Positions 12,690 to 41,330 of a stretch of DNA of 64,000 nucleotides are shown here, piece after piece. The first letter of the stretch is position 1, and every line of letters starts with the position of its first letter. The DNA lies in assembly GCF_010731715.1 (NCBI RefSeq), contig NZ_AP022587.1, positions 1,178,001-1,242,000 on the forward strand. Reading direction: 5' to 3'. A program made the position numbers and the translations under genes. Source of the DNA: Mycobacterium stomatepiae. GTDB taxonomy: Bacteria; Actinomycetota; Actinomycetes; Mycobacteriales; Mycobacteriaceae. A model generated the notes under the pieces. It searched no databases. It worked only from the letters and a program-made list of their open reading frames with translations, and had not been told where the DNA came from.

Positions 12690-12696
12690 GGCGCGC

Positions 12697-20889: not shown

Positions 20890-20896
20890 TGGCACC

Positions 20897-21886: not shown

Positions 21887-23223
21887 CACACCTCCAGCCT
21901 GCTGTTGCCGACCGCGAAGTACGAGTTGCCCAGCTCCGATGCTGGCAAGTGGCTGAAGTGATTCCAGTAGTCGAACACGAAGCCGTCGGGAGCGATGAAC
22001 TCGCTGATCGTGCGCGGCGAAATTCTGCCAAGCTCAGGATGATTGTTGGCGATGATCACCACCGACGCTCCGCTCACGGCGTCGCCGAGTCGATCGAATG
22101 CATGCTCGTCGGGGAAGGCCGCCTCCAGGTGCTCGGTCGTGATGACCGGGTCGAACAACCGGATTTCGGCGTCCGGATGAGCCTTCTTCACTTCGTCGAG
22201 CACCTTGATGGACATCGACCCCCGGAGGTCATCGGTAGCGGGAATGCCCTTAAAGGCCATGCCCAGCAACGCTATTCGTAACGGCGCGGCAAGATTGCGC
22301 CGGGCGACCTCGTCGCTGATGAAGTTGACTGTTTCGGCCGGCTGTCGCTCGTTGACGAGCCGGCCCGCGACGGTGATCTCCAGTTCGATTCCGCGGGTAC
22401 GCGCGCTCTGCAGCAGGATGTGCGGATCCTTCTCCAGGCACGGCCCGCCCACCAGGCCCGGCAGCGGGACGTTGGTCCGCTGGTATCCCAACTTCCCGGA
22501 CGAGATCACCTCGTGCGCATTGACCGCGAACGCATCGCACAACCGCGCCACTTCGTTTGCGAACGCGAAATGCACGTCACGGTAAGTATTGTCGACGAGC
22601 TTGATGATTTCGGCGGCCTCCGGCGTCGACACCTGGACGATGGAGTTGGTCAGCCGGCGGAAGATGGCCGCGGCACGGTCGCTGACGGCGGGCTCGTCGG
22701 CGCCCACGATCTGCGGCAATTCGCGAAGTTCTTGCAGTGCTCGACCTTCCAGTGTTCGCTCCGGGCACATGGCGATGTCGAAGTTCTTGCCGGACTGCGC
22801 GAGAATGGGCGAAACCACATCGCGCGTGGTTCCGACTTTCACCGTGGACCGCAGGATCACCAGTGCGCCATCGCTCATGTTCGCGGTGACCTCGCGGCTG
22901 GCCGCCTCGATCATGTCGGTACGGACGAGTCCTTCGCTGGACAGCGGCGTCCCGACCGTGATGATGTACGCGTCGCACACCGCATCTGGACTGAGTTGCC
23001 CGACGGCCACCAGGCTGCCCGACCCGACGACTCGGGACAGGGCTTCCTGCAGTCCGGTCTCGGAAAAATGTGGGATACCGGCATTGGTCTGTTCGACCAC
23101 CTCTGGCCGCTTCTCCACGCCGATCACTTTGTTGCCAGCCTCGGCCAGCACCGTCGCGAGCGTTAGCCCAACGTAGCCAAGGCCGATGACGCCCACGTCA
23201 TAATGCGAAACTGGCTGACCCAT
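21886..23223 (-). CDS. UDP-glucose/GDP-mannose-type sugar dehydrogenase
   Basis: This 445-residue NAD-dependent 6-dehydrogenase converts a nucleotide hexose to a uronic acid. The N-terminal domain has VGVIGLGYVGLTLA and the TVGTPLS segment, and the middle has the catalytic cysteine in GGPCLEKDPH with the helix SGKLGYQRTNVPLP before it. The C-terminal domain has LGMAFKGIPATDDLRGS. The short motif form is closer to the WecC (UDP-ManNAc) branch than to classical Ugd, but I cannot fix the substrate. ATG 23223 has GGAGGG just upstream. GPL of some serotypes carry glucuronic acid, which would suit this gene. Confidence 0.85.
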   Translation of the reverse strand: MGQPVSHYDVGVIGLGYVGLTLATVLAEAGNKVIGVEKRPEVVEQTNAGIPHFSETGLQEALSRVVGSGSLVAVGQLSPDAVCDAYIITVGTPLSSEGLVRTDMIEAASREVTANMSDGALVILRSTVKVGTTRDVVSPILAQSGKNFDIAMCPERTLEGRALQELRELPQIVGADEPAVSDRAAAIFRRLTNSIVQVSTPEAAEIIKLVDNTYRDVHFAFANEVARLCDAFAVNAHEVISSGKLGYQRTNVPLPGLVGGPCLEKDPHILLQSARTRGIELEITVAGRLVNERQPAETVNFISDEVARRNLAAPLRIALLGMAFKGIPATDDLRGSMSIKVLDEVKKAHPDAEIRLFDPVITTEHLEAAFPDEHAFDRLGDAVSGASVVIIANNHPELGRISPRTISEFIAPDGFVFDYWNHFSHLPASELGNSYFAVGNSRLEV

Positions 23224-23444
23224 GGTCCCTCCCGACAGTCGATATGCCAATCATTGCCGACCCGGCCGGATCTGCGGCGCGAAATGCTCTGCAAGCACGG
23301 CGTCGACATGCAATACACATCTCCTTCGTCCTTGCCCTGCAACCCACCGCACCCGGTAGTGTGCCACCCAATGGGTCTGGGCTGTCCGGCGGCAGTTGAA
23401 GTCCCTGCTTTGCTTCGTTTCGCGCAGAACCGAGGAGATTGCAG
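23224..23444. promoter_or_regulatory. Divergent promoter region
   Basis: The 221 bp separate the leftward dehydrogenase operon from the rightward GT-C gene, so both should start here. No gene or clear operator was recognised. GAGGAG at 23432-23437 is the ribosome site of the rightward gene. Confidence 0.5.
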
Positions 23445-24926
23445 ATGAATCGACCCGAGAAATCGCGACGCGGTCCGGTCACCGCGGTCCGGGAAGGGTT
23501 TGGGGCCGTCACCGGACAATCCCCGCGTACCATCGTCCTCGGCACGATCCTGCTGGCGACGGCGGTTTCGGTGTTCACGGGTTTTGTTCTCACGCAATAC
23601 TTCGCGATCGATGTCATTTCTTCTTTGCTCGCTTTCCCTTACGCCGATTGCTACCTCGACTGGGGCACGAACATCGGCCGGCACTGCTTCAGCGACTACG
23701 CATTCGAAGTGATGTACGGCATGCGGGCCAATCCGTGGGAGCCCTTCGACATATTCGTCCAACCGGACTACCACCAACTGGCGGTCAATAACTACCCGGC
23801 GGCCGGCATGCTTCCGCAGGTGGCTTTTGGGCTGGTGGGCAAATTATTGGGCGCGCCTGTCCTGGGGCTGTTGGGCTACCTGCTCGCCCTGACTGTCGCG
23901 GTGCTTTCGCCCGCGGTATGGGCGGCCCGGGGCGCTCAGGGCCTCGAGCGGATTGTGGTTTTCGTGGCCTGTGGCGCCGCGGCGATCCCGGTGTGGTCCG
24001 TGATCGACCGGGCAAACTCGGTGGGTTTCATCGCTCCGATCGGCCTGGTGTTCCTGATCGCCCTGGTTCGGCAACGCTGGGGACTCGTCGCGGCAATGGT
24101 CATCCTCGCCGCGCTGCTCAAGCCGCAATTCGTGATACTGGCCATCGTGCTGTTGGCTGCCCGGCAGTGGCGGTGGGGCGGCATCGCGCTGGGCGGCGCG
24201 GTCGTTTTGAATGTCGCCGCATATTTGTTCTGGCCGCAACACTTTCCGCACAACATCGTGCAATCGGCGGCCGGCGTTCTCGGCTACGGCGCGGGCAGCC
24301 TCAGCGCCGTCGCGACCACGAACGTCTCGTTCAGCCGATCACTGCTGTTGGCACCCGACATTCTGATGTTCTTGCAAACCGGCGGCAAAATGCCCGACGG
24401 CTACCTGGCCGGTCCGCGCTCGATGATCGGATACGTCATCCTCGTCCTGGTCGTCGTCGCCGTGCTGGCGCTGGGACGACGCATCCCGCCCGTCCTGGCG
24501 GGCATCGTGCTGCTGGTGACCGCGGCCCTGTTCCCGATGGTCAGCATCAGCTACTACTTCGTGTTCGCCCTGCCGATCGCGGCGCTGCTGGTGCGGGATC
24601 CGGCCGGGCCGCCGGGCACCGGGATCCTGGACCGGCTCGCAACCGTCGCCGGCCACCATCGCACGGTCGGCATCTGGCTGAGCCTGGCCACGGCGCTCAC
24701 CCTCGCGACGATCGCGCTGCCGAGCCCGCCGATGCAGGTCCTGCTGTACCGCAAGGACGGCCCGCCGATCCAGGAGCTCACGGTGCTCACCACGGCGACG
24801 CTGGTGCCGATGCTGTGGCTGGTGACACTGGTGATCATCCTCGTCACCTACGCTCGCAAGCCGGACGCGGCCACAGACGCCGACGCGGCATCCGAGTCAC
24901 CGGTGGCGGCCACCACCACGTCCTGA
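23445..24926 (+). CDS. Polytopic GT-C glycosyltransferase (GT87/DUF2029-like)
   Basis: This 493-residue integral membrane protein has about ten helices, for example TIVLGTILLATAVSVFTGFV near the N terminus and IGYVILVLVVVAVLALG near residue 330. The first periplasmic loop carries DCYLDWGTN and the LLKPQF motif lies near residue 226, features of the mycobacterial GT-C/GT87 group that uses polyprenyl-phosphate sugars on the outer face of the membrane. ATG 23445 is placed by GAGGAG seven bases upstream. With a GtrA flippase (24939-25448) and a GtrB-like synthase (28751) nearby it would complete a Gtr-type glycosylation system. Confidence 0.82.
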   Translation: MNRPEKSRRGPVTAVREGFGAVTGQSPRTIVLGTILLATAVSVFTGFVLTQYFAIDVISSLLAFPYADCYLDWGTNIGRHCFSDYAFEVMYGMRANPWEPFDIFVQPDYHQLAVNNYPAAGMLPQVAFGLVGKLLGAPVLGLLGYLLALTVAVLSPAVWAARGAQGLERIVVFVACGAAAIPVWSVIDRANSVGFIAPIGLVFLIALVRQRWGLVAAMVILAALLKPQFVILAIVLLAARQWRWGGIALGGAVVLNVAAYLFWPQHFPHNIVQSAAGVLGYGAGSLSAVATTNVSFSRSLLLAPDILMFLQTGGKMPDGYLAGPRSMIGYVILVLVVVAVLALGRRIPPVLAGIVLLVTAALFPMVSISYYFVFALPIAALLVRDPAGPPGTGILDRLATVAGHHRTVGIWLSLATALTLATIALPSPPMQVLLYRKDGPPIQELTVLTTATLVPMLWLVTLVIILVTYARKPDAATDADAASESPVAATTTS

Positions 24927-24938: not shown

Positions 24939-25448
24939 CTAGGTGGTGCGGGTCGTCTCGTCCCGCGCATCCGCACTGTCGGTGTCGCCGCCGCTTCGCC
25001 GGAACGAGAAGTAGCGGTGGCCGAAGTAGCTCAGCAGTGTGGTCGACGCCAAGATGATCGCCTGTGCCGGAATGCGATTCAGACCGAGCTCGACCAACAC
25101 GGGCAAGGCGACGACATTGATGCCCAGCGCGGTGAGGTAGACACTTCAGAAGCGCACCAGGTCGCGCAGCACGTGGCCGCGGACCCGAAACACGAAGCGT
25201 CGATGCATGACGAAGGCGAACAGCACGCCCAGCACGTGGGAAATCCCGACTGTCGCGAGCGCGCCAGCGACCTTGCCCAACCGATGGTCGACGAAGTGGC
25301 CGATGCTCTCCGAGACGGCGATGAAAAGGCCGAAACCGACGACCGTGTTGATGCCACCGACCAGCACGAACGCCACGCGCTGATCCCGCACCAGCCGGAT
25401 CAGCGGTCCCGGAGGCGCCGATTCGGGTGGCAGGTCGAATTCGGTCAC
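24939..25448 (-). pseudogene. GtrA-family flippase, interrupted by an in-frame TGA
   Basis: The small four-helix GtrA family moves polyprenyl-phosphate sugars across the membrane. The frame starts at GTG 25448, overlapping the stop of the next gene upstream, and reads FVLVGGINTVVGFGLFIAV and HRRFVFRVRG. It then hits TGA at 25146-25148 inside a helix. The same frame goes on at once with SVYLTALGINVVALPVLVELG and a good C terminus (LLSYFGHRYFSFRR) to TAG at 24939. A single codon change therefore splits an otherwise intact protein of about 169 residues. Loss should disable flipping unless the stop is misread or a sequencing error. Confidence 0.85.
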
Positions 25449-26461
25449 GCGAGGCTTTCGAAGCCGGCGATCTGCTCCTGCGTCGCCACCATCACGTCGG
25501 CACCCTGACGCACGCGGCGCTCCCAGTCGACCGTCCAGGCCAGAGCCTCGTGGAAACCCAGCCGGTTGCGCCAACCGAGCTCGCGGTGCGCCTTGCTGGC
25601 GTCCAGGGCCAGCAAGTTGGCCTCGTGCGGTTGCGCACCGTCCACGAGCACCCAATGCGCGCCACCGCCCCACATCTCCGCCGCCAGCGTGGCCACGCGC
25701 CCGACCTCGACGAAGCTGTCGCGACCCGGGCCGAAGTTCCACTCGCCCAGTCCGGAGCCAGCTAACAGGGCGTCGACGAGGGTGAGATAGCCGTTCAGGC
25801 AGTCGAGCACGTGTTGCCATGGCCGCACCGCGTGCGGGAAACGCAGCTTGGGTGCCTGGCCGCTCGCGTAAGCGGCCATCAGGTCCGGTAGCAGCCGATC
25901 CCGGCTGATGTCCCCGCCGCCGATGACGTTGCCCGCGCGCGCGATCGCGGTGGGGGTGCCCGGAAAGCTGCGAATCCAGGACTGGGCCAGCAGATCCGCC
26001 ATCGCCTTCGACGCGCTGTACGGATCGTCGCCGCCGAGCGGATCGGTTTCGACGTAGCCGGCCTGCTGGCCGACGTTGCGGTAGACCTTGTCGGTGGTCA
26101 CGACGACGTGCGCGCGCACCGATTCGGCGGCCGCGACGGCCTCGATCACGTTGAGCGTGCCGATCGCGTTGGTCTCGTAGGTGTACCGCGGGTCGCGATA
26201 GGACTCGCGGACCAGCGCCTGCGCCGCCATGTGCACCACGACGTCGGGAGCGGCGGCGGACACCGCAGCCTTGGTGGCTTCGGCGTCGCGGATGTCGACC
26301 CGGAAGTCACAGTCGAGGTGCTCGGCCAGCCCCAACCGTTTGAACAGGCTGCCCTCGTCGGGGTCGAGGGCCAGACCCGACACGCGGTGCCCACGGCCGA
26401 AAAGGAGCAGTGCGAGCCAAGCGCCCTTGAACCCGGTGTGCCCAGTGACCAGATAGTGCAC
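25445..26461 (-). CDS. rfbG: CDP-glucose 4,6-dehydratase
   Basis: This 338-residue extended SDR converts CDP-glucose to CDP-4-keto-6-deoxyglucose with bound NAD. The start GTG 26461 (HYLVTGHTGFKGAWLALLL) gives the hallmark GHTGFKG motif. The catalytic YSASK lies near residue 148, after the TTDKVYRN strand. It sits 2 bp after the rfbH-type gene, and its stop overlaps the GtrA start. Together with the cytidylyltransferase at 27984 it commits glucose to the CDP-3,6-dideoxyhexose branch. Confidence 0.93.
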   Translation of the reverse strand: MHYLVTGHTGFKGAWLALLLFGRGHRVSGLALDPDEGSLFKRLGLAEHLDCDFRVDIRDAEATKAAVSAAAPDVVVHMAAQALVRESYRDPRYTYETNAIGTLNVIEAVAAAESVRAHVVVTTDKVYRNVGQQAGYVETDPLGGDDPYSASKAMADLLAQSWIRSFPGTPTAIARAGNVIGGGDISRDRLLPDLMAAYASGQAPKLRFPHAVRPWQHVLDCLNGYLTLVDALLAGSGLGEWNFGPGRDSFVEVGRVATLAAEMWGGGAHWVLVDGAQPHEANLLALDASKAHRELGWRNRLGFHEALAWTVDWERRVRQGADVMVATQEQIAGFESLA

Positions 26462-26463
26462 GG

Positions 26464-27771
26464 CTATCGGGCAGCCTCGGCCATGTACTCGCGGATCGAA
26501 TCCGCCACGAAGTCGAGCATCGGCGTCGTCAGCGCCGGGTAGGTGCCGACCCAGAAAGTCCGGTTCATCACGATGTCGGTGTTGGTCAGGTCCCCCACGA
26601 TCCGGAAGTCGACATCGCGGTACGCGGGCTGTTTGACGAGGTTGCCGGCGAACAGTTGCCGGAACCCGATCTTGCGCTCGTCGAGGAACTGCATGAACTT
26701 CGTTCGGTCGACCGGGTGCTCGGGATCGAGCGTGATCGGGTAACCGAACCACGACGGGTCCGAGTTCGGCGTGGGCACCGGCAGGATGAGCCCCTCGACA
26801 CCGGTCAGTCGCGAGGTCAGGTACTTGAAATTGTCCTTGCGCGCCTGGACGAACCCGTCGAGCTTGGCCATCTGGGACAGCCCCACCGCGGCCTGCATGT
26901 CGGTGGCCTTGAGGTTGTAACCGATGTGGCTGTAGATGTACTTGTGGTCGTAGCCCCTGGGCAGGTCACCGAGTTGCCACTCGAACCGTTTCTCGCAGGT
27001 GTTGTCGTTGCCCGGCGCGCAGTAGCAGTCCCGGCCCCAGTCGCGGAACGACTCCGCCTGCTTGCGCACCAGCGCCGACTTGACGAACACGGCGCCGCCC
27101 TCGCCGGTCGTAATGTGGTGTGCGGGATAGAAACTTACCGTCGCGGTGTCGCCGAAACTGCCGGTGCGTTTCCCGTCGTAGGTCGACCCGAGGGCATCGC
27201 AGGAGTCCTCGACCAGCCATAGGCCGTGCTTGTCGCACAACTCCTGGACGGTGTCGAGGTCGAACGGATTGCCCAGGGTGTGGGCCATCATGATGGCCCG
27301 TGTCTTGGGACTGACGGCCTCGCGGAGGCGATCGGGTATGGCGTCGTAGGTGCCCAGCTCGATGTCGACGACCACCGGACGCATTCCATTCTGGATGATC
27401 GGGTTGACGGTCGTGGGAAATCCCGACGCAACCGTCAGCACCTCGTCGCCGGGTTCCAGCGGACGCTTGCCGAACCGCTTCTTGTACTGGCCGAGCTTCG
27501 GGCTGGTCAGGGCGCTGAGCGCAACCAGGTTGGCGCTCGACCCGCTGTTGACGAAGATGGCTCCCCGGGCGCCGACGTAGCGGGCCAGGGCCCGCTCGAA
27601 GAGCGGATGGAACCGGCCCGCGGTCAGCCAGCCGTCCAGCGAAGCGTCGACCAGCGCGGCGAAGTCTTCCGGGTCCAGGACCTTGCCCGACACGGGGACC
27701 GGCGTGACGCCGGGGACGAACTCGGAAGTCGTGAGCTTGTGCTTCGCGTATTCGCGGACCGCGGACAGCAT
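26464..27771 (-). CDS. rfbH: CDP-4-keto-6-deoxyglucose 3-dehydratase (E1, RfbH/DdhC)
   Basis: This 435-residue member of the DegT aminotransferase fold is adapted to remove the C3 hydroxyl. The PLP-binding lysine is replaced by histidine in FYPAHHITTGEGGAV (around residues 218-219), the known mark of E1 and ColD. The segment DCYCAPGNDNTC supplies cysteines of the [2Fe-2S] cluster found in E1 but not in ColD. N-terminal VNSGSSANLVAL and the EDSCDALGS motif complete the fold. E1 needs a reductase partner (E3); none is in this window. It is divergent from rfbF and followed directly by rfbG. Confidence 0.93.
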   Translation of the reverse strand: MLSAVREYAKHKLTTSEFVPGVTPVPVSGKVLDPEDFAALVDASLDGWLTAGRFHPLFERALARYVGARGAIFVNSGSSANLVALSALTSPKLGQYKKRFGKRPLEPGDEVLTVASGFPTTVNPIIQNGMRPVVVDIELGTYDAIPDRLREAVSPKTRAIMMAHTLGNPFDLDTVQELCDKHGLWLVEDSCDALGSTYDGKRTGSFGDTATVSFYPAHHITTGEGGAVFVKSALVRKQAESFRDWGRDCYCAPGNDNTCEKRFEWQLGDLPRGYDHKYIYSHIGYNLKATDMQAAVGLSQMAKLDGFVQARKDNFKYLTSRLTGVEGLILPVPTPNSDPSWFGYPITLDPEHPVDRTKFMQFLDERKIGFRQLFAGNLVKQPAYRDVDFRIVGDLTNTDIVMNRTFWVGTYPALTTPMLDFVADSIREYMAEAAR

Positions 27772-27983
27772 ATCCTCGCGATACTCCTCAAGCCCGCCCC
27801 CCGTAAGCCCATCGGTATCGAGTCTTGAAATGAGATCTCCTCGTGCGTGTGTGGTCTGTACTGCGCCCGGCAGGCCTGGGAAACCCCGCCACCGCGTTTC
27901 GACATTGCTAGTGTGTCACCTGCGCGTCGCCGCGTCAGCAAAACCGGTCGGGGAACGATCGCCTTGAGATTGGACCAATCCTC
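27772..27983. promoter_or_regulatory. Divergent promoter region between rfbH and rfbF
   Basis: This 212-bp gap separates the leftward rfbH-rfbG-gtrA group from the rightward rfbF-led operon. The CDP-sugar genes on the two sides would be switched on from here together. I saw no clear operator or hairpin. Confidence 0.5.
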
Positions 27984-28760
27984 ATGAAAGCCGTGCTTCT
28001 CGCTGGTGGTCTGGGTACCCGCATGCGGGAGGAAACCGAGTTCCGGCCCAAGCCCATGGTGGAGGTCGGGGGACGGCCGGTGCTGTGGCACATCATGAAG
28101 ATTCTTGGACATCACGGCATCTCGGAATTCGTCGTCTGCACGGGCTACAAGAGCGAGTACATCAAGGGCTACTTCTCGAACTATGGGGTGTCGAACCTCG
28201 ACTTCACCATCACCCTCGGTGACCAGTCGAGCATCAAGTATCACGGTTCGCACGACGAATTCAATTGGCGGGTCACGGTCGCCGACACCGGCTTGAACAC
28301 GATGACAGGCGGCCGCATCAAGCGCATCCAGAAGTATGTGGGCGAGGAAACCTTCCTCTGCACGTACGGCGACGGCATCGCCGATGTCGACATTCCCGCC
28401 CTGCTGGAGTTTCACAAGTCGCACGGCAAACTCGCCACGGTGACGGCCACTCAGCCGATGAGCCGGTTCGGGGTCATCGACCTGGAGCAGGACGGTGCGG
28501 TCGCCAAGTTCCGGGAGAAGCCCAAGACCGAAGACTGGATCAACATCGGCTACTTCGTCTTCGAGCCGGGGGTGCTCAACTACCTCGACGGTGACGAGAC
28601 GGTGTTGGAGGACAAGCCGTTGCTACGTTTGGCCGAAGACCGCCAGATCGCCGCGTTCGGACACCGAGGGTTCTGGCAGCCGATGGATACCTTCCGGGAA
28701 TCCCAGCTGCTGAACAACCTCTGGAACAGCGGGAACCCCCCGTGGAAAGTATGGGAGTAG
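27984..28760 (+). CDS. rfbF: Glucose-1-phosphate cytidylyltransferase
   Basis: This 258-residue nucleotidyltransferase makes CDP-glucose from CTP and glucose-1-phosphate. It shows the N-terminal LLAGGLGTRMREET loop with FRPKPMVEVGGRP, the GYKSEYIKGYF segment, CTYGDGIADVD for the metal site and WINIGYFVFEPGVL. Length and motifs match RfbF closely. It opens a rightward operon that continues without gaps through the GtrB-like, TPP and aldolase genes, and supplies the substrate for RfbG encoded on the other side of the divergent promoter. Confidence 0.94.
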   Translation: MKAVLLAGGLGTRMREETEFRPKPMVEVGGRPVLWHIMKILGHHGISEFVVCTGYKSEYIKGYFSNYGVSNLDFTITLGDQSSIKYHGSHDEFNWRVTVADTGLNTMTGGRIKRIQKYVGEETFLCTYGDGIADVDIPALLEFHKSHGKLATVTATQPMSRFGVIDLEQDGAVAKFREKPKTEDWINIGYFVFEPGVLNYLDGDETVLEDKPLLRLAEDRQIAAFGHRGFWQPMDTFRESQLLNNLWNSGNPPWKVWE

Positions 28761-29701
28761 GCGTGGGAGTGAAGAAGAAGATCGCCGTAATCGCCCCTGC
28801 CTACAACGAAAGTGAATGCGTCGAGGAGCTAGCTCGCCAGCTGGCGGCGGTCTTCGACTCCGAGCCGGGGTACGACTTCGAGGCCATCATCGTCGAAAAC
28901 GGTTCCAGCGACGACACGATGGACAAGCTGCTCACCATCCACAAGGCGGACCCGCGATTCAAGATCGTGCAGCTGGCCCGCAACTTCCGGATGGATGGCG
29001 GCCTGACCGCCGGCCTCAATGTCGCCGACGCCGACGCCGTCGTGCTGATGACGGCCGACCTGCAGGACCCGCCCGAGTTCATCCCGCAAATGATCCGGGC
29101 ATGGGAGCAGGGCTACGAAAACGTCTACGGGGTGGTCACCGAGCGTGGCGGCACCGGCCCGATTCGCAAGATGAACTCCCAACTGTTCTATTGGCTGGCG
29201 GGCAAGCTCACAGACGATCGAATTACCAGCAATGCCAGCGACTTTCGTTTGGTCGACCGTAAGGTGTACGAGGCCGTGCGTTCGATGGACGAACGCAACC
29301 GGTTCGTCCGGGGCCTGTTCTCGTGGGTGGGTTTCAAGTCGATCGGACTGCCGATGAAGCGGGCGCCCCGCTTCGCCGGTGAATCCAAGGCCTACACCCT
29401 CAAGGTGATGGACCTCGCCGGCAAGGGAATTCTCACCCACTCGTATGTACCGCTGCGGCTCATCACGATGACCGGGTTTTTCTTGAGCGCCATGGCGGCC
29501 GTCGCCGTGCTCATCCTCGCAGCGCGGTTCGTCTTCTACGGGGTGCCGTTCCCGGGATTCGGGTCGCTCATCTGCGTGATGCTGATCGGGTTCGGCGTGA
29601 TCACACTGCTACTCGGGGTCGTCGGCGAGTACCTTGCGCTCATCTACGAAGAGGTCAAGCAGCGCCCCAACTTCGTTGTCAGCCAGAAAGTTGGCTTATG
29701 A
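28751..29701 (+). CDS. Polyprenyl-phosphate glycosyltransferase (GtrB/DPM-like GT2)
   Basis: This GT2 enzyme of about 316 residues has IAVIAPAYNESECVEEL, the ENGSSDDT motif, the MTADLQDPPE metal site and the NASDFRLVDRKV region. It ends with two membrane helices (FFLSAMAAVAVLILAARFVFY and LICVMLIGFGVITLLLGVVG), the GtrB/ArnC layout. Such enzymes load a sugar onto undecaprenyl- or decaprenyl-phosphate. It overlaps the rfbF stop; GTG 28742, ATG 28751 and GTG 28762 or 28768 are possible starts, and I use the ATG. Its stop overlaps the TPP gene by ATGA. The donor may be the CDP-sugar made by its neighbours, but that is inference. Confidence 0.87.
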   Translation: MGVGVGVKKKIAVIAPAYNESECVEELARQLAAVFDSEPGYDFEAIIVENGSSDDTMDKLLTIHKADPRFKIVQLARNFRMDGGLTAGLNVADADAVVLMTADLQDPPEFIPQMIRAWEQGYENVYGVVTERGGTGPIRKMNSQLFYWLAGKLTDDRITSNASDFRLVDRKVYEAVRSMDERNRFVRGLFSWVGFKSIGLPMKRAPRFAGESKAYTLKVMDLAGKGILTHSYVPLRLITMTGFFLSAMAAVAVLILAARFVFYGVPFPGFGSLICVMLIGFGVITLLLGVVGEYLALIYEEVKQRPNFVVSQKVGL

Positions 29702-31523
29702 CCTCTCTGCCCCTGAAGTACTCGGATCAACTGACCGACTGGCTGGTCGACGCCGGGTACACGCACTGCTTCTTCGTCGCGGGTGGCAACAACATGCACC
29801 TGCTGAACTCGGTGCGGTCAAGGATGGTGTGCGTGCCGTTCGTGCACGAGGTCGCCGCCGCGATTGCGGTGGAATATTTCAACGCCGCCCGCGACGAAAA
29901 CACCGGACGCGCACTCGCGTTGGTAACAGCCGGTCCCGGAATCACCAACGCCATCACCGGAATCGCGGGTGCGTGGCAAGAAAGTCGCGAACTGCTCATC
30001 ATCGGCGGGCAGGTCAAAAGCAGCGACCTGAGCCGCGGCGCGCTGCGGCAGCGCGGCATCCAGGAGATCGACGGCGTGGAGCTGCTGCGCAGCGTCACCA
30101 AACGCGCGATCCGTATCGAGCAACCGGTCGAGCGCCATGTCATCCTCGACGCAGTACTGGACGGCCGCACACCCCGCCAAGGACCCGTCTTCCTGGAGAT
30201 CTGCCTCGACGCACAGGGCGCACCCGGGCTGGCCGGCCAGGACGGCGTCGCGATTCCCGCATCCGCCGCCCTCCCCCAGGTGTCCGCGACGGACCTGGAA
30301 CAAGTGGTGGACTGGACGCGCAAGTCGGAGCGTCCCGTCGTGCTGATCGGCGGCGGGGTCAGCCGCGCGGCCGTGCGAGCCCTGGGCCAGCGCGCCGCGG
30401 CCGCAGGCGTCCCGTTGATGACCACCTGGCACGGAGCCGACCGCGTTCCGGCCGAGCACCCGATGTACGCGGGCCGCCCGAACACCTGGGGACAGCGGTC
30501 AGCCAACATCCTCATTCAGCAGGCCGATCTGGTGATCGCCATCGGCAGCCGGCTGGGGCTGCAGCAGACGGGTTTCGCCTGGGAAGAGTTCGTCCCCGTC
30601 GGGCGGTTGATCCAGGTCGACATCGACGCCGCCGAACTCGAAAAGGGGCATCCGCGCGTCGACCTCGCACTACGCGGCGACGCCGACGCCTTCCTGGCCG
30701 CGTTTTACGGGGCCGACCTCGGCGACGCCGCGCGGTGGCAGCCGTGGCGGGAATTCATCGCCGCCGTGCGGGCCGAGCTGCCGCTGAACGATCCGGAGAA
30801 CGTCACGGCCGCGGGATACGTGAAGCCGTATGAGTTCGCGATGCGGTTGGCCGAGGTCGCCCAGCCCGATGCGATCGTGGTGCCCTGCAGCAGTGGCGGC
30901 GCCTTCACCGTCGCCATGCAGGCCATGCAATTGCGAGCGGACCAGAAAATCGTCTCGAACAAGGCGCTCGCAAGCATGGGGTACGGGCTCTCCGGGGCCA
31001 TCGGCGCGGCGCTGGCCAACCCCCGCCACCAGGTGTTCCTCACCGAGGGAGACGGCGGATTCGCGCAAAACCTCCAGGAACTCGGCACGCTGGCTGCGAC
31101 AGCGGCCAATGTCAAAGTCTTCGTACTCAACAACAATGGGTATGCGTCGATTCGGATGACACAGCGCAACTACTTCCGGGGGGGGCATGGATCGGTTGCG
31201 ACGCGCAGACTGGCCTGGGTCTGCCGAGCTGGGAGGAGCTGGCCCGGGCATACCGGATTCCGTTCGCCCGGCTCGACGCCGAGGCCGGTTTGAACGCTCC
31301 TTCCGTCGTTTCCCTGCTGGAAGCGGACGGTCCGGCGCTGATCGAAGTGCCCATCGACCCGGATCAGACCTACTACCCGAAAATAACTTCGGCGGTCCAG
31401 GCCGACGGCTCCATGAAGTCCAACCCGCTGCACCGGATGAGTCCCGACCTTCCTCCCGATGTGGAGAAGCGGGTGTCCGTACACCTCGGCGCCACAATGT
31501 CCCAAGCCGCAGGCGCGAATTGA
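29698..31523 (+). pseudogene. Acetolactate-synthase-like TPP enzyme, frameshifted at a G8 run
   Basis: Restored, this is a thiamine-diphosphate enzyme of about 609 residues. The N-terminal domain has catalytic Glu51 in FVHEVAAA, the middle domain has RPVVLIGGGVSRAA, and the C-terminal domain has the TPP motif GDGGFAQNLQEL to NNNGY. The frame breaks in a run of eight G at 31178-31185. A ninth G would join YFRGG to AWIGCDAQTGLGLPSWEEL and carry on to TGA at 31523. As given, translation ends at 31293 with a wrong tail. There is no ilvN or ilvC nearby, so branched amino acid synthesis is unlikely. The setting suggests a YerE-like role, adding an acyl unit from a 2-keto acid to a 4-keto sugar. Confidence 0.82.
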
Positions 31524-31618
31524 GCGCGTCAGGTGTTTTGCCCAAAATCGCCCGTCGTGTCGGATGACGCGGAATCATTCTCTGCAGATTGATTGGGGCC
31601 CAAACAGGGGAAGGCGAG

Positions 31619-32419
31619 ATGAACAAGACCGAACGGCAGATGGTCGAGATCCTGCGTGTTGGCAAGGAAAAGCACGGCGTCGTGAGTGTGAAGGCCGAGT
31701 TCGAGGCTGAAGGCACCCGAATCGATGAGTTGCTGCGCCTTGTCGACATCGCGCGCTCCGCGGGTTTGCCGCTCACGGTCAAGGTCGGTGGCTGCGAGGC
31801 GATGCGAGATCTTCTCGAAGCCAAGCAGATCGGGGTGCGCTACATCGTCGCACCGATGGTGGAGACCGCCTACGCCCTCTCGAAGTACATCGCCGCCAAG
31901 AACACCGTGTACGACGAGGACGAGGAGCTCGACACCGATTTCCTGTTCAACCTGGAAACGATCACGGGTTTCAACAACCTCGATGAGATGCTCGAACTGG
32001 CCCACAAGAACCGCGGTGTGCACGGCATCGTCTTCGGCCGGGTCGACTTCACCGGGTCGCTCGGGCAGACCCGCGAAACCATCAACAGCCCGGAGATCAC
32101 CCGCTATGTGACGACCGCCGCCGAGAAGGCGAAGCAGGCCGGTCTCGATCTGGTGCTGGGCGGCGCGATATCCAGCGACACTCTCGACACGATCCGCGAA
32201 GTCGCGAAGGTGCACCTGACCCGTTTCGAGACCCGCAAGGTCGTGCTCGACGGCTCGGCCGGCACGCTCGACTCGATCGAAGACGGGCTGCTCAACGCCG
32301 TGCACTTCGAATTGCTCTGGCTGCTGAACAAGCGCGACTACTACGGCCACATCACCGACGGGGACCCTAAGCGCATCGAGATGCTGGACAAACGCTGGAA
32401 GGTGCTCAACCACCACTGA
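31619..32419 (+). CDS. HpcH/HpaI-type aldolase (citrate-lyase family)
   Basis: This 266-residue TIM-barrel protein has the class II pyruvate-aldolase pattern: [13 protein letters not shown] with the metal-binding Glu, the [10 protein letters not shown] strand, and [14 protein letters not shown] with the metal Asp. The family cleaves or forms 2-keto-4-hydroxy acids with pyruvate and a divalent metal. ATG 31619 has GGGGAAGGCGAG before it. The gene lies between a TPP enzyme and an SDR in a sugar operon. A synthetic role, condensing pyruvate with a short aldehyde to a 2-keto-3-deoxy acid for the TPP enzyme, is my inference. The exact substrate is unknown. Confidence 0.82.
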
Positions 32420-32552
32420 GCACCACGTCGGCACCGCCCCACATCTCCGCCGTCGCAGTGCCGCGGATAGCGTATGGGCACGTGCAACAAGAAGGGACGA
32501 GCGTGACCGGGTCCGGCCAGCGGCGCGTCCGCGATCGCGGGGTTGAACACAC

Positions 32553-33218
32553 GTGAGTTCCACCGCCCTTGTCACCGGCGCCGCGCGCGGCATCGGCCGC
32601 AGCGTCGCCGAGACCTTGGAGTCGAAGGGAATTCGAGTGCTGCGGCCCAGCCGCCACGAACTCGATCTCGCGGAGCCCGAATCCGTCGCCGCCTATCTCG
32701 GCGAACTTGACGAGACCGTCGACATCCTCGTGCTCAACGCCGGCATCAACAATCCCGAACCCCTGCAAGAGATTTCGTCGGAGAATTGGTCGGCCACGCA
32801 GCAGGTGAACGTCAGCGCGAATCTGCAACTCCTGCAGGAACTGCTGCCAAGGATGGCCGCCGCCGGCTACGGCAGGGTGGTCGCGGTATCGAGCGTCTAC
32901 GCACACCGGGCTCGTGCCGGACGGGTGGCCTACAGTTCGTCGAAGGCCGCGATCGAGGAAGTGGTGCGCTCGGTCGCCGTGGAGTACGGCCCCTTCGGTG
33001 TCATCGCCAACTGTGTTGCCCCGGGATTCGTCCTCACCGATCTGACGTACCAGAACAACGATGCGGAGCAGCTCGAAGCGCTGGCCGCGCGCGTCCCGCT
33101 CGGCCGTCTGGCCGAGCCGGTGGAGATTGCCCGCTTTATTTCTTGGCTGGTGTCGGCCGAGAACTCCTATATCACTGGACAGTCCATAACGATCGACGGA
33201 GGTTTTCTGTGCCTGTGA
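32553..33218 (+). CDS. Short-chain dehydrogenase/reductase
   Basis: This classical SDR has 221 residues: TGAARGIGRSV for NAD(P), NAGINNPEP, catalytic Ser in VVAVSSVYAHR and Tyr-Lys in VAYSSSKAA, then the C-terminal ITGQSITIDGGF. The GTG start at 32553 is the first in a fitting position. Its stop overlaps the start of the dehydroquinate-synthase-like gene. Within the cassette it could reduce the keto group left by the TPP ligation, or a keto intermediate of the side-chain precursor. Confidence 0.85.
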   Translation: MSSTALVTGAARGIGRSVAETLESKGIRVLRPSRHELDLAEPESVAAYLGELDETVDILVLNAGINNPEPLQEISSENWSATQQVNVSANLQLLQELLPRMAAAGYGRVVAVSSVYAHRARAGRVAYSSSKAAIEEVVRSVAVEYGPFGVIANCVAPGFVLTDLTYQNNDAEQLEALAARVPLGRLAEPVEIARFISWLVSAENSYITGQSITIDGGFLCL

Positions 33219-34297
33219 CCCAGGATCGAATGATCATCAAGTCCGAACAGGGTGACTATCCGGTGGATTTCGTCGGTGACGTCGCGCAGGTGCCCGCGCT
33301 GGTCGATGCCGGCCCGGAGACGTTCGTCATCATCGACGAATTGCTGGTCGAGATCTACGGCGAAGCGCTAGGCGAGCTGCTGAAGTACCCGACCTATCGA
33401 GCGACGGCCGACGAAGAGACCAAAACCCTTGCCGGCGTGAGCATTTTCATCGACTGGCTGCTGGAGAACAAGGCAACGCGCTCGGCGCGCATCGGGGCGA
33501 TCGGCGGTGGCGTCATCCAGGACGTCGCGACCTTCGCGGCGCACGTCTACTACCGCGGCGTGAGTTGGACCAACGTTCCGACCAACCTGCTCAGTCAGGC
33601 GGACAGTTGCATCGGGGCGAAATCCAGCATCAACGTGTTGCCGCTGAAGAATCAGCTCGGCGTCTTCCACTCACCCAGCCACGTGGTGATCTGCTCCGAG
33701 TTTCTGACCAGCCTGCCCCAGGTCGAGCTGGACTCGGGCTATGGCGAGATCTACAAGCTTGCGCTCACCAATGACGGCGCGTTCTTCGACGACCTCGTCG
33801 ACGCCCTGCGCGATGGGGGCCACCGCAATCCGCGTCTGCTGGAGATGATCCGCAACTCCCTGGAGAGCAAGCGGCTGGTCATCGAGCAGGACGAACACGA
33901 GTCGGATCTGCGGCGCGTGCTGAACTACGGCCATAGCTTCGGCCATGCGCTGGAAGCGCTGACCCACAACGAAGTTCCGCACGGAATTGCCGTGATGTGG
34001 GGCATGGACCTGATTAACTTTCTCGGCGTGAAGTGGGGCCTGACCAACCCGCAAACGGCCGCACGGGTACGCGCCGCGCTGACCGCCAACACCGACTACA
34101 CGATCCAGAACATCCCGTCGGCGCGAGAGCTGGTGGATACGCTCAAGCGCGACAAGAAGGTTCGCAAGGGCGTCATGCACTTCTCGGTCCTGCACGACGA
34201 GGGCGACCTGAGGATTGTGCCGAAAGAACTAGACGAGGCACTGGTAGCCGAGGTCTCGGAATACTTGGATGACGAGCCGCTCTTCGCTGCTCGTTGA
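33209..34297 (+). CDS. 3-dehydroquinate synthase-like sugar-phosphate cyclase or lyase
   Basis: This 362-residue AroB-superfamily protein has the NAD-binding GAIGGGVIQDVATFAA, the QADSCIGAKSSIN phosphate-site motif, and all three metal ligands: Glu in GYGEIYKLAL (about 178), His in LNYGHSFGH (about 241) and His in VPHGIAV (about 257). AroB oxidises, eliminates phosphate, reduces and cyclises DAHP. Relatives act on other sugar phosphates. No shikimate genes are near, so a specialised role is likely: either a cyclitol, or phosphate elimination on a 2-keto-3-deoxy acid. GTG 33209 follows GGAGG by six bases and is preferred to GTG 33215. The next gene starts inside it. Confidence 0.8.
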   Translation: MPVTQDRMIIKSEQGDYPVDFVGDVAQVPALVDAGPETFVIIDELLVEIYGEALGELLKYPTYRATADEETKTLAGVSIFIDWLLENKATRSARIGAIGGGVIQDVATFAAHVYYRGVSWTNVPTNLLSQADSCIGAKSSINVLPLKNQLGVFHSPSHVVICSEFLTSLPQVELDSGYGEIYKLALTNDGAFFDDLVDALRDGGHRNPRLLEMIRNSLESKRLVIEQDEHESDLRRVLNYGHSFGHALEALTHNEVPHGIAVMWGMDLINFLGVKWGLTNPQTAARVRAALTANTDYTIQNIPSARELVDTLKRDKKVRKGVMHFSVLHDEGDLRIVPKELDEALVAEVSEYLDDEPLFAAR

Positions 34298-35542
34298 CGT
34301 CGGCGCGACCTACATCAAGGTCGCGGTGCTGCGCGACGACGAAAACATCGTCGCAGAAAACAAATTCGACTTTCCCCCGTTCTCATCGCTCGACGGACCG
34401 TATCGGACGGTCGACCCCACGGTAACGCTCGCCGCGGTCGAAGCGGCCATCGCGTCGGTCCTGCCCGGGGCCGACAACCCGGAGCGGATCCTGCTGAGCG
34501 GACAAATGCACGGCTGGACGCTGACCGACGAGCACAACGTGCCACAGCTGCCTTTGGCCACCTTCCAGGACAACCGCGCGCTCTCTCCCCGCAACGGCAG
34601 CTCCTACCTCGACGAACTGCGCAACGCACAACCGTCGGAGACCTGGCTCGCGGCCGGAAACGAGCTGCGCTCGGGTCTGCCGGTCGCGGGCATCTATGCG
34701 ACCGACCTCACGGCCTTCGACGGCCCCCTTCGGGTGCACAGCCTGCTGTCGTGGGTGGCCGCGGCACTGACCGGCGCACCGGCCTTCGTGCAGCACCTCA
34801 CCGATGCAGCTGCCTCCGGCATGTTCGACCTGAAAGCCGGATCCTGGTCCGAGCCGATCGCCGCCCTGGTCGGCGGCCGCACCCGACTGCGACTGCCGCG
34901 GGTCTCGTCGGCCCTGGAGGTGGTCGGCATCCACCCCGCTTCGGGCGCGGCCGTTTTCACTCCGGTGGGCGATCAACAGGCGGCGCTGCTCGGTGCCGGT
35001 CTGCGACACGGCGTTACCGCATTCAACATCTCCACCGGGGGTCAAGTTGCCCGGCTCGCCGACACCCACGCCGAAGACCGTTGCCAGACCCGCCATATTT
35101 CGACGGACTGCTGCTGCACACCAGGACGCACCTGCCGGCCGGACGCACACTCACGCACGGCGTTGAGTTGCTCTCACGCGGTGACGCCGACGACCGCGCA
35201 TGGGAGTGGGCCGTGCGCGCCGCCGCCACGCCCACGAATCGTCCGCTCCCCCACGCGCACCCGACGTTCTACCACGCTAACGGCGGTGGGTGGTCACAGA
35301 TCACGGATGCGCACACCGCCGAAGACCTGCTACGCGCGCTCGTTATCGCGGTCGCCGCGCCCTACGTCCACTCGGCACCGGAAGTCGGATACCTCCCGTC
35401 GGATGAATTGCTGTTCTGCGGTGGCGTGGCCCAGCGTTTCGCCCCGCTGCGCGCCGCTATCCAGTCGGGCCTGGGCGGGCCCGCGACGGTGGCACCCGAC
35501 GGAGATATGGCGCTGCGCGGGCTCGCCGTGGTGACGCGATAG
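34269..35542 (+). pseudogene. FGGY-family sugar kinase, frameshifted
   Basis: The N-terminal part (ATG 34269, overlapping the previous gene by 29 bp) has the phosphate loop LLVDVGATYIKVAVL and the substrate motif SGQMHGWTLTDE. The middle has AFNISTGGQVARL, the second phosphate motif. The frame breaks near 35088-35095, where one missing base would join it to PYFDGLLLHTRTHLPAGRTL and the C-terminal LLFCGGVAQRFAPL ending at TAG 35542. The restored length of about 424 residues suits a FGGY kinase of the xylulokinase/sedoheptulokinase group. It would phosphorylate a sugar or sugar acid for the dehydroquinate-synthase-like enzyme. Confidence 0.8.
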
Positions 35543-36691: not shown

Positions 36692-37624
36692 TCAAGTCCG
36701 GCCGAGCACCCCGCGGGCGGTGATCTCGACTTGACCGTCCAGCGGTACGGTGTCGAATTGCCATTTCTGGCAACGACTTTCCCAATCCTGTCCGTCGCTG
36801 TGGTACCGATCCGGATTACCGGCATCGACCGTGTCACGGCTGATTGGCGCGTCCGGGCGCACGACTCGGGCGACCCGACTTGCCAGTTCCGCCATCTCTA
36901 CCAGCTCACCCCCGCTGTCGATCGTGCAGGGCCCGACGCCGCCCTCGGCGATGCCCAGTGCGAGTAGCTCCTCGGCAAGGACGTAGCGGCGAAACACCGG
37001 ACGGCGCGCGGTGATTCGTATCGCCCCGGAGTTCGCAGCCTGGATCATCGATCCCAACGCATAGTTCTGCGGATTCTGCACGTGGGCACCCGAGATGCTC
37101 CACGCTCGGGCGACCACTGACGTCACCCCGCTGTCGCCCGCCGCCTGCGCCAGCCGGTGCTCGGCCTCGCGCTTGAGATAGCCGTACGGGTTGTCCTCGA
37201 CTTGCCCGTCGAGAGCGTCGCGGGGGTAGACGGCCGCCCCGCTGGAGACGGTGAGTGCCAGGCGCACCCCCGGCAGGCGCGTCGCGTACACCAATTGGTC
37301 GGTCAGGCCGCGGTTGACGGCAACGTACTCGTTCAGCGGCATCCCTGCGACCCGGTCCCGGGTAAGAAACGCGCAGTCCAGCACGACGGTCGGCGCGAAG
37401 GATGCAACCTGCACGGGATCCCATGCGTAGCAGTCGATTTCGCGATCCGCGACGCGGATGCGTCGGGTCCGACTGGCCAGAGCCAGGGTCGGCAGACCCA
37501 ACGGTGCCAGCAGGTCGAGAGCGGTTCGCCCGAGCCAGCCGGACGCGCCGGTGATCAGTATCCGGTCGTCGCCGAGTGATCGCGCTGCGAACTTCCGCGC
37601 GCTCGTGCTCACCAACCCCGTCAT
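36692..37624 (-). CDS. NAD-dependent epimerase/dehydratase family protein
   Basis: This 310-residue extended SDR has ILITGASGWLGRTALDL for NAD binding, a serine pair in LTVSSGAAVYP and catalytic Tyr-Lys in NPYGYLKREAE. The C-terminal half is less typical of sugar-nucleotide enzymes, so the substrate is open. It starts 8 bp after the end of the acyltransferase gene and is read from the same strand, so the two are probably co-transcribed. Confidence 0.8.
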   Translation of the reverse strand: MTGLVSTSARKFAARSLGDDRILITGASGWLGRTALDLLAPLGLPTLALASRTRRIRVADREIDCYAWDPVQVASFAPTVVLDCAFLTRDRVAGMPLNEYVAVNRGLTDQLVYATRLPGVRLALTVSSGAAVYPRDALDGQVEDNPYGYLKREAEHRLAQAAGDSGVTSVVARAWSISGAHVQNPQNYALGSMIQAANSGAIRITARRPVFRRYVLAEELLALGIAEGGVGPCTIDSGGELVEMAELASRVARVVRPDAPISRDTVDAGNPDRYHSDGQDWESRCQKWQFDTVPLDGQVEITARGVLGRT

Positions 37625-37632
37625 GCGACAGG

Positions 37633-41325: not shown

Positions 41326-41330
41326 GCGGG

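What the first reader, a model, noticed from the sequence alone, without database searches (positions are those of the whole stretch)
25445..35542. Candidate pathway for a branched 12-carbon CDP-sugar (caryophyllose type) inside a GPL locus
Seen: rfbF, rfbG and an rfbH-type E1 (PLP Lys replaced by His, Fe-S cysteines) next to a TPP enzyme, an HpcH-type pyruvate aldolase, an SDR, a dehydroquinate-synthase-like enzyme and a FGGY kinase, tightly packed. Known: RfbF/G/H give a CDP-3,6-dideoxy-4-keto-hexose intermediate, and YerE-type TPP enzymes add an acyl unit to C4 of it (yersiniose). From memory, caryophyllose, found in M. marinum lipooligosaccharide, carries a 1,3,4,5-tetrahydroxyhexyl group on C4 of a 3,6-dideoxyhexose. 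Inference: that side chain is what results if a 3,7-dideoxy-2-heptulosonic acid (pyruvate plus a C4 aldehyde by the aldolase) is decarboxylated by the TPP enzyme, joined to C4, and the new ketone reduced by the SDR. The set explains the aldolase and TPP enzyme in one scheme, and I know of no such sugar assigned to a GPL locus.
Basis: partly seen in the sequence, partly recalled or inferred. Interest (0 to 1): 0.92.

Follow-up and report, generated by a model that had tools for sequence, protein, structure and literature searches.

The report
Caryophyllose sugar cassette in glycopeptidolipid locus
A mycobacterium carries, inside the gene region for one kind of surface lipid, the same gene cassette that a related species uses to build the rare 12-carbon sugar caryophyllose for a different surface lipid, and comparing many bacteria suggests how the sugar's unusual side chain is made.

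Summary
Window 24,957-35,534 is one cassette: GtrA, RfbG, RfbH | RfbF, polyprenyl-phosphate-type GT2, TPP enzyme, HpcH-type aldolase, SDR, AroB-like enzyme, FGGY kinase. It is colinear, about 80% identical in DNA, with a cassette beside PKS and mmpL genes in an unnamed M. marinum-like genome. In M. marinum the TPP enzyme (MMAR_2332), the GT (MMAR_2333) and, by gene order, the aldolase (MMAR_2331) are published as needed for caryophyllose. Here the cassette lies beside NRPS and mmpL genes, a glycopeptidolipid locus; my searches found no such report.

On mechanism: of 33 loci with this aldolase, 19 have an AroB-like gene plus SDR, ten a HAD phosphatase, four neither in the stretch seen, none both. 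In two mycobacteria a NeuB-like gene replaces the aldolase. The AroB-like enzyme keeps 13 of 13 residues checked. I infer: the aldolase makes a phosphorylated 3-deoxy-2-ulosonate, AroB-like eliminates the phosphate, the SDR reduces the resulting ketone (hence the terminal methyl), and the TPP enzyme joins this unit to C4.

In this assembly TPP enzyme, kinase and GtrA are broken, so this strain may not make the sugar. No chemistry was tested. Product class: likely. AroB route: plausible.

The parts
23439..24926 (+). Candidate GT-C glycosyltransferase (495 aa), likely transfers a polyprenyl-phosphate-linked sugar
   Evidence: No Pfam or NCBIfam match; AlphaFold model, mean pLDDT 66.6; best Foldseek hits PimE 9dm5 (E 2e-4) and, third, ALG6 6snh (E 6e-3); that both are GT-C is recalled. 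Moderate confidence.
24957..25447 (-). GtrA/DPMS-type membrane protein, in-frame stop near 25.15 kb in this assembly
   Evidence: PF04138 on the open part; 81% to M. ahvazicum GtrA
25445..26461 (-). RfbG, CDP-glucose 4,6-dehydratase
   Evidence: TIGR02622 above cut-off; 79% to the M. marinum-like copy
26464..27771 (-). RfbH, CDP-4-keto-6-deoxyglucose-3-dehydrase (E1)
   Evidence: NF011936 above cut-off; 3BCX 561 bits, active-site His kept; C-X57-C-X-C-X7-C
27984..28760 (+). RfbF, glucose-1-phosphate cytidylyltransferase
   Evidence: TIGR02623 above cut-off
28742..29701 (+). GT2 of polyprenyl-phosphate sugar transferase type; counterpart of MMAR_2333 (WcaA) by order
   Evidence: NF047588 PgfS 221 bits and NF007986 (undecaprenyl-phosphate transferase) 133 bits, both under their cut-offs; 88-90% to L035/L036
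29698..31524 (+). YerE-like TPP enzyme, broken in this assembly (two frames meeting near 31.18 kb); counterpart of MMAR_2332
   Evidence: 82% (residues 7-499) and 82% (496-606) to M. marinum IlvB1_3 as two separate pieces; tree
31619..32419 (+). HpcH/CitE-superfamily aldolase; counterpart of MMAR_2331 by order
   Evidence: PF03328; 94% to L035; AlphaFold pLDDT 88.4; Foldseek best CLYBL 5vxc E 2.5e-9, next HpaI 4b5w E 7e-9
32553..33218 (+). Short-chain reductase found with the AroB-like gene; proposed reductase of the C6 ketone
   Evidence: PF13561; with the AroB-like gene in 19 of 19 such loci, detected in 0 of 10 phosphatase loci
33215..34297 (+). AroB (dehydroquinate synthase)-like enzyme; proposed phosphate-eliminating enzyme on a 3-deoxy-heptulosonate 7-phosphate
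   Evidence: Best model TIGR04425, 305 bits, under its cut-off of 400; 13 of 13 checked residues kept; housekeeping AroB is elsewhere in the genome
34269..35534 (+). FGGY kinase, broken in this assembly near 35.09 kb; accessory phosphorylation step, exact substrate unknown
   Evidence: PF00370; two pieces, 83% and 78%, to M. ahvazicum
36692..37624 (-). Epimerase-family oxidoreductase; candidate for reducing the ketone left by the TPP step
   Evidence: PF01370; relatives near the aldolase in loci of both types and in the M. marinum-like genome
35746..36669 (+). Methyltransferase next to the cassette, possibly acting on the sugar
   Evidence: PF13489; relatives in L001 (M. ahvazicum), L006, L013, L022, L039, L041

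Best explanation
The block is a sugar cassette, shared with a LOS-type locus, that makes a caryophyllose-type sugar (a CDP-3,6-dideoxyhexose carrying a 1,3,4,5-tetrahydroxyhexyl chain on C4) and passes it to a polyprenyl carrier, here for a glycopeptidolipid. Steps. (1) RfbF, RfbG and RfbH give CDP-3,6-dideoxy-4-keto-glucose (established family functions). (2) The aldolase joins pyruvate to a phosphorylated C4 aldehyde such as erythrose 4-phosphate, giving a 3-deoxy-heptulosonate 7-phosphate (inferred). (3) The AroB-like enzyme oxidises, eliminates the phosphate and re-reduces as dehydroquinate synthase does, but releases the open-chain 3,7-dideoxy-hept-2,6-diulosonate instead of closing the ring (inferred). 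(4) The SDR reduces C6, giving 3,7-dideoxy-heptulosonate (inferred). (5) The TPP enzyme decarboxylates it and adds the C6 unit to C4 of the keto-sugar (as reported for YerE and ErwE; for MMAR_2332 reported only with an aldehyde acceptor so far). (6) An epimerase-family reductase reduces the remaining ketone (inferred). (7) The GT2 loads the sugar on polyprenyl phosphate, GtrA helps it cross the membrane, and a GT-C enzyme transfers it (inferred from families and fold). Estimates: caryophyllose-type product, 0.85; a 3-deoxy-2-ulosonate donor, 0.85; AroB-like plus SDR creating the terminal CH3, 0.6; destination GPL, 0.7; a working pathway in this very strain, 0.4.
For: Colinearity with the cassette of an M. 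marinum-like genome: nine genes at 72-94% protein identity, about 80% DNA identity with sharp ends, GtrA included, beside PKS, FadD-type and mmpL genes there. Published mutants of MMAR_2331-2333 lack caryophyllose (PMC5706390); MMAR_2332 is the YerE-like enzyme for it and has a donor preference like ErwE, i.e. hydroxylated 2-keto acids (PMC12247030). The TPP gene is in the fetched stretch in 30 of 33 aldolase loci. AroB-like plus SDR and HAD phosphatase exclude each other: 19 / 10 / 0 both / 4 neither of 33 loci; all 10 phosphatases confirmed by Pfam. A whole-genome search finds a single AroB-family hit in each of the 10 phosphatase genomes and a second one in 3 of the 4 'neither' genomes. The phosphatase state changed at least 4 times on the aldolase tree. 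Two TPP-positive mycobacteria have a NeuB-like gene in the aldolase's place and no AroB-like gene. In 248 genomes of the genus, the 6 with the AroB-like gene (E up to 1e-110) are all among the 8 with the TPP enzyme (E up to 1e-120). AroB-like keeps 13 of 13 residues, including the recalled carboxylate-binding Arg264. GPL setting: NRPS domains and mmpS/mmpL genes lie next to each other.
Against: No enzyme here was assayed and no sugar was seen. Three cassette genes are broken in this assembly. The exclusion of AroB-like and phosphatase has Fisher p 4e-6 with relatedness ignored (32 loci), but phylogenetically independent pairs are too few to be significant (5 pairs; phosphatase goes the other way in 3.3 on average, the same way in 0; p 0.125-0.25). 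It was tested for the phosphatase only within the fetched stretches, some cut by contig ends. The kinase fits poorly: 14 of 19 AroB-like loci show none, so it is accessory or my account of its step is wrong. L006 has neither gene and no second AroB-family hit. The aldolase is remote from solved ones (best PDB match by sequence E 2e-4), and the HpaI Arg70 position could not be matched with confidence. No E3 reductase partner for RfbH was looked for. The locus tag MMAR_2331 for the aldolase is inferred from order, not read from a record. The depositors of the second-best PDB match (5ahk) call it acetolactate synthase II.
Confidence: 0.78

Rival explanations
1. The AroB-like enzyme closes a ring as dehydroquinate synthase does, so the cassette makes a carbocyclic or cyclitol-bearing sugar rather than an open-chain branch.
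For: It keeps every dehydroquinate synthase residue checked, and its nearest NCBI model is named a cyclizing phospholyase.
Against: The orthologous cassette of the M. marinum-like genome has an 84% identical AroB-like enzyme, and M. marinum LOS is published with open-chain caryophyllose (PMC5706390). The paired SDR and the swap with a phosphatase fit an open-chain route better.
Confidence: 0.12
2. The sugar is another C4-branched one (gastriose-like or a new diastereomer) rather than caryophyllose.
For: The loci show that the keto-acid module is swapped between species; the review names several such sugars (PMC12247030).
Against: The window carries the complete M. marinum-type set in the same order; the two NeuB-type mycobacteria lack aldolase and AroB-like genes in the stretches fetched.
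Confidence: 0.15
3. In this strain the cassette is a decaying remnant and no branched sugar is made.
For: TPP enzyme, kinase, GtrA and a nearby acyltransferase are interrupted relative to M. ahvazicum, 4 of 17 open frames compared.
Against: A close full-length copy of the TPP enzyme exists (P0122); the other cassette genes are open and highly conserved; frame errors in a single-contig assembly cannot be excluded.
Confidence: 0.4
4. The SDR reduces the ketone left by the TPP enzyme, and the terminal methyl comes from a ready-made deoxy aldehyde.
For: A reductase is needed for that ketone in every version of the pathway.
Against: The SDR was not detected in any of the 10 phosphatase loci, which need that step too, and was found in all 19 AroB-like loci.
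Confidence: 0.15

Closest known systems
Caryophyllose genes of the M. marinum LOS locus (MMAR_2328-2337 by inferred order)
   Same: Same ten genes in the same order and orientation; nine compared as proteins, 72-94%, GtrA within the DNA alignment
   Different: Lies beside PKS, FadD-type and mmpL genes; here beside GPL NRPS and mmpS/mmpL genes
Yersiniose and erwiniose pathways (YerE, ErwE) on CDP-3,6-dideoxy-4-keto-glucose
   Same: RfbF/G/H acceptor, TPP enzyme adding a decarboxylated 2-keto acid to C4 (PMC12247030)
   Different: Own aldolase, AroB-like enzyme, SDR and kinase to build a C7 keto acid; TPP sequence only distantly related to solved TPP structures
Gastriose (M. gastri, MygE)
   Same: Mycobacterial branched sugar made with a YerE-like enzyme (PMC12247030)
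   Different: I recall a C7 chain without the terminal methyl; the NeuB-type loci of G104 and G044 may be of this kind, but neither genome is known to be M. gastri
3-Dehydroquinate synthase (AroB)
   Same: Family and 13 of 13 checked residues
   Different: Second copy beside the housekeeping one, found with an SDR; below the aroB cut-off (249 of 305 bits); proposed not to close the ring
HpcH/HpaI class II pyruvate aldolases (YfaU, HpaI)
   Same: Superfamily fold; the two metal-ligand positions, Glu113 and Asp143, invariant in the 24 sequences aligned (ligand role from the family)
   Different: Far in sequence; no curated aldolase model above cut-off

Membership tests
M. marinum-type caryophyllose cassette | All pathway genes, same order | tested here: met
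M. marinum-type caryophyllose cassette | Caryophyllose in a surface glycolipid | not testable with these tools
   Needs GC-MS and NMR
YerE-like TPP enzymes | Groups with rfb-linked TPP enzymes, apart from acetolactate synthases | tested here: met
   29-row clade, support 100/99, apart from three of its own genome's other TPP enzymes (of 14 found) and from L008_18110; their branches are long and none is a labelled catabolic enzyme. Best PDB hits 8rph and 5ahk, which I recall as JanthE and PpYerE; 5ahk is titled acetolactate synthase II. No named YerE or ErwE sequence was in the tree.
YerE-like TPP enzymes | Accepts a ketone and a 2-keto acid | not testable with these tools
   No assay
RfbH (E1) dehydrases | His for the PLP lysine, C-X57-C-X1-C-X7-C (motif recalled) | tested here: met
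RfbH (E1) dehydrases | E3 reductase partner | not tested
   None among the cassette genes identified; the genome was not searched for it
3-Dehydroquinate synthase | Catalytic and substrate-binding residues (A. nidulans numbering, recalled) | tested here: met
   13 of 13 in the window and in 10 of 11 proteins compared, of 19 known; L022 differs at K197 and is unreadable at H275
3-Dehydroquinate synthase | Curated aroB score | tested here: not met
   249 bits against 305, so not filed as AroB
TIGR04425 cyclizing phospholyase | Curated score 400 | tested here: not met
   Window 305; four relatives 271-311; best-matching model all the same
HpcH/HpaI pyruvate aldolase | Fold and metal ligands | tested here: met
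HpcH/HpaI pyruvate aldolase | Catalytic Arg70 | tested here: inconclusive
   Very weak alignment there; an invariant Lys55 lies close by
GPL locus | Two large NRPS genes beside mmpS/mmpL, with GPL-type glycosyltransferases | tested here: met
   that this is the GPL layout, and the names mps1/mps2, mmpS4 and mmpL4, are recalled

The most novel reading that the evidence does not exclude
A dehydroquinate-synthase relative works as a non-cyclising deoxygenase: it strips the phosphate from an aldolase-made 3-deoxy-ulosonate phosphate by elimination, and with its partner SDR turns a CH2-OP end into a CH3 end; across bacteria this pair is swapped for a phosphatase, and in some mycobacteria the aldolase for a NeuB-like synthase, so that C4-branched sugars are built from exchangeable chain-making modules that also move between lipooligosaccharide and glycopeptidolipid loci.
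Probability: 0.55. Interest if true: 0.75.

Novelty: new member of a known kind. Interest (0 to 1): 0.6.

Why it matters
In the papers I could see, how caryophyllose's side chain is made is not assigned beyond the TPP enzyme. The swap pattern gives each gene except the kinase a definite, testable step. If right, it adds a new job for the dehydroquinate synthase fold, a rule for predicting the chain end of C4-branched sugars from genes, and a case of a whole sugar cassette shared between two classes of mycobacterial surface lipid.

Tried and rejected
Catabolic acetolactate synthase for the TPP enzyme: not supported. The catabolic model (TIGR02418) gives 139 of 551 bits, and every acetolactate synthase model among the 25 shown is far below cut-off, the best with 220 of 738; tree and neighbours point elsewhere, though no labelled catabolic enzyme was in the tree.

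TIGR04425 or aroB membership: best models, but both cut-offs missed.

This says nothing about its genome. Novosphingobium plasmid records carry a 53% aldolase relative, not followed.

Literature: 'glycopeptidolipid' with 'caryophyllose' gave one paper, PMC13354803, in which the one passage shown for caryophyllose is in the reference list; 'Mycobacterium', 'glycopeptidolipid', 'branched-chain sugar' gave none; of three papers holding two of dehydroquinate synthase, caryophyllose, erwiniose and yersiniose, none holds dehydroquinate synthase; 'gastriose' gave only PMC12247030; some searches were seen as listings. The library lacks most subscription papers, and three cited originals that I asked for are not held (Steitz 2022, Rombouts 2009, Krug 2024), so absence here is weak. 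Passages of two papers that mention dehydroquinate synthase gave no residue table for carboxylate binding; that residue's role is recalled.

Full report
Observation. A GT2 of polyprenyl-phosphate type lies between RfbF and the TPP enzyme, and a GtrA gene lies left of RfbG. RfbH keeps the E1 marks: best PDB match 3BCX, 561 bits, with the histidine kept, and the cysteine spacing C-X57-C-X1-C-X7-C (motif recalled). The TPP gene changes frame near 31.18 kb, the kinase near 35.09 kb and an acyltransferase gene near 37.8 kb, and GtrA has a stop near 25.15 kb: 4 of 17 M. ahvazicum open frames compared, one of which (113 aa) may be no gene. A full-length TPP protein, 99% identical over 93% of the window's frame, is known elsewhere (P0122), so the break is not general.

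Setting. The window is base 1,178,001-1,242,000 of a single-contig 6.21-Mb genome, a Mycobacterium by its relatives. NRPS condensation domains lie at 1,171,263-1,186,057 on the minus strand in two long frames (2562 and 3438 aa), running into the window. An mmpS-type gene and two mmpL genes follow at 9205-15633, then ABC exporter genes to 18278 and EryCIII-like glycosyltransferases at 40057-46176. This is the layout of a GPL locus (recalled). The nearest match to the PKS that lies beside the M. marinum-like cassette is 53% identical and about 660 kb from the window's cassette.

Same cassette in M. marinum. Searching 248 genomes of the genus with the M. marinum M protein IlvB1_3 (P0132) found 8 with a close relative (E up to 1e-120); G236 has it at 99%. 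Around it lie all the window's cassette genes in the same order, nine of them at 72-94% protein identity; DNA aligns over window 24982-31492 (81%) and 31605-35529 (78%), and apart from a rearranged stretch at 23646-24652 nothing else of the window aligns with the 40 kb fetched there at E up to 1e-20. L036 also holds a PKS, an mmpL-family gene and an AMP-binding, FadD-type gene. PMC4403928 (section 11 read) lists MMAR2340 as PKS, 2341 as fatty acyl-CoA synthetase, 2342 as MmpL and 2333 as glycosyltransferase; PMC12247030 (passages) names MMAR_2332 as the caryophyllose TPP enzyme. Counting genes in L035/L036 from the PKS gives RfbG 2336, RfbH 2335, RfbF 2334, GT2 2333, TPP 2332, and so aldolase 2331, SDR 2330, AroB-like 2329, kinase 2328; the two independent anchors agree. 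PMC5706390 (passages) reports that mutants of MMAR_2331, 2332 and 2333 accumulate the LOS precursor without caryophyllose. The aldolase is thus needed for caryophyllose, or for its transfer as that paper allows, if the inferred tag is right.

TPP enzyme. In a 33-row tree the window piece sits in a 12-row clade with IlvB1_3 (100/99; 11 mycobacterial rows and the unnamed P0199) inside a 29-row clade (100/99). That clade holds the 24 rows taken from the window and the rfb- or aldolase-linked loci, and 5 database proteins, four of whose surroundings were not looked at. Three other TPP enzymes of the same genome, of 14 found, and a second TPP enzyme of L008 fall outside, on long branches. Best PDB matches are 8rph (235 bits) and 5ahk (190 bits), then acetolactate synthases (165 and less); I recall the first two as JanthE and PpYerE, though 5ahk is titled acetolactate synthase II.

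What comes with the aldolase. One genome-contig scan gave 22 loci, genome searches added 2 (G236, G160), 2 (G440, G614) and 6: with the window 33 loci. The TPP gene is in the fetched stretch in 30 of 33; L004 and L020 are cut by contig ends, and in L021 it is not in the stretch, though a TPP protein named for the same organism (P0131) comes from a contig of the same length, 435,757. RfbH at 50% identity or more is in 24 of 33.

The swap. In the same cluster, within about 4 kb of the aldolase, 19 of 33 loci have the AroB-like gene and the SDR together; 10 have a HAD phosphatase (L005, L010, L012, L013, L014, L016, L017, L019, L020, L056); 4 have neither in the stretch (L003, L006, L021, L058); none has both. 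All ten phosphatases match Pfam HAD families. The pattern was noticed on the first 25 loci; the eight fetched later gave 6 AroB-like, 1 phosphatase, 1 cut. A whole-genome search with TIGR04425 found one AroB-family hit, taken as the housekeeping one, in each of the 10 phosphatase genomes; two in both AroB-like controls given (L008, L015) and in the genomes of L003, L021 and L058 (in the last the second is a fragment at a contig end); and one in that of L006. So by genome up to 22 have the AroB-like gene, 10 the phosphatase, 1 neither. Incomplete genomes could hide some, and genomes were not searched for phosphatases outside the stretches. By locus, without L058, Fisher's test gives p 4.4e-6 with relatedness ignored. 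On the 32-row aldolase tree (L022 left out because its aldolase is in two pieces) the phosphatase state needs 5 changes, at least 4 forced by well-supported branches; a test on independent pairs (without L058) cannot reach significance (5 pairs, p 0.125-0.25).

NeuB type. In G104 and G044 the gene next to the TPP gene is a NeuB-family protein (under the curated cut-offs of the NeuB and PseI models for the one tested). Aldolase, AroB-like gene and kinase were not detected in the 40 kb fetched from each; G044 has an SDR of 33% identity some 6.7 kb into L042. In the genus sample the AroB-like gene (E up to 1e-110) occurs in 6 of 248 genomes, all of them among the 8 with the TPP enzyme; the other two are G104 and G044.

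Mechanism. NeuB-type synthases and HpcH-type pyruvate aldolases both give 2-keto acids of the 3-deoxy-2-ulosonate kind (established knowledge). Finding one or the other beside the TPP enzyme supports such an acid as its donor, in line with the donor preference reported for MMAR_2332 and ErwE (PMC12247030). A phosphatase beside the aldolase suggests that the aldol product bears phosphate. The exchange of phosphatase for AroB-like plus SDR suggests another way of losing it. Dehydroquinate synthase acts on a 3-deoxy-heptulosonate 7-phosphate, eliminates phosphate after transient oxidation at C5, and passes through an open-chain 2,6-diketo form before ring closure (established). If released there, the product is 3,7-dideoxy-hept-2,6-diulosonate; reduction at C6 gives the acid whose decarboxylation yields caryophyllose's 1,3,4,5-tetrahydroxyhexyl chain. 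The window enzyme keeps all 13 residues that I checked against the genome's own AroB, including the arginine that I recall as binding the carboxylate; the same holds for 10 of the 11 proteins compared, L022 being the exception. From the published name (D-altro chain, PMC5706390) I derive that C5 fits D-erythrose 4-phosphate and that C4 is opposite to DAHP, which would explain a dedicated aldolase; this is reasoning, not a test. The kinase was seen in 5 of 33 loci, all mycobacterial; I take it as an extra source of the phosphorylated intermediate.

Reductases and transfer. The SDR follows the AroB-like gene, so it is assigned to C6. Relatives of the gene at 36692-37624 occur in loci of both types and in the M. 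marinum-like genome about 17 kb from the AroB-like gene, which makes it a candidate for the ketone left by the TPP step; L012, L014, L016, L017 and L019 have another epimerase-family cluster instead (Pfam for L012 only). The GT2 resembles polyprenyl-phosphate transferases, GtrA is next to a GT2 in L008, L009, L010, L011 and L018, and the protein at 23439-24926 folds like PimE and ALG6 (model confidence modest). So the sugar is probably transferred outside the membrane.

Verdict. A new member of a known kind: the M. marinum-type caryophyllose cassette, in a GPL locus. The route proposed for the side chain is the more novel part and remains inference.

Noticed in passing
L039:16261-17403 and L041:16687-17715: NeuB-family gene in the aldolase's place next to the YerE-like TPP gene in two mycobacteria; possibly a gastriose-type pathway.
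   Followed up: partly
L012, L014, L016, L019 (about 10.3-15 kb): A radical SAM gene, a second gene with a weak radical SAM match, an epimerase-family gene and a further family recur behind the aldolase in these betaproteobacterial loci (some of them also in L017 and L020); role unknown.
   Followed up: no
window 36906-39845: Acyltransferase with SGNH domain, interrupted near 37.8 kb relative to M. ahvazicum; sugar acylation of the GPL is possible.
   Followed up: no
L003 near 11.4 kb: Integrase-core fragment right behind the aldolase in M. asiaticum; the AroB-like gene lies about 18 kb away on a contig of the same length, as if the cassette had been split.
   Followed up: partly
window 19948-23250: UDP-sugar dehydrogenase and two epimerase-family genes left of the cassette, suggesting a further uronic acid or deoxysugar in the same glycolipid.
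   Followed up: no
window 49896-50897: Weak sulfotransferase-family match (below cut-off) near the GPL glycosyltransferases.
   Followed up: no
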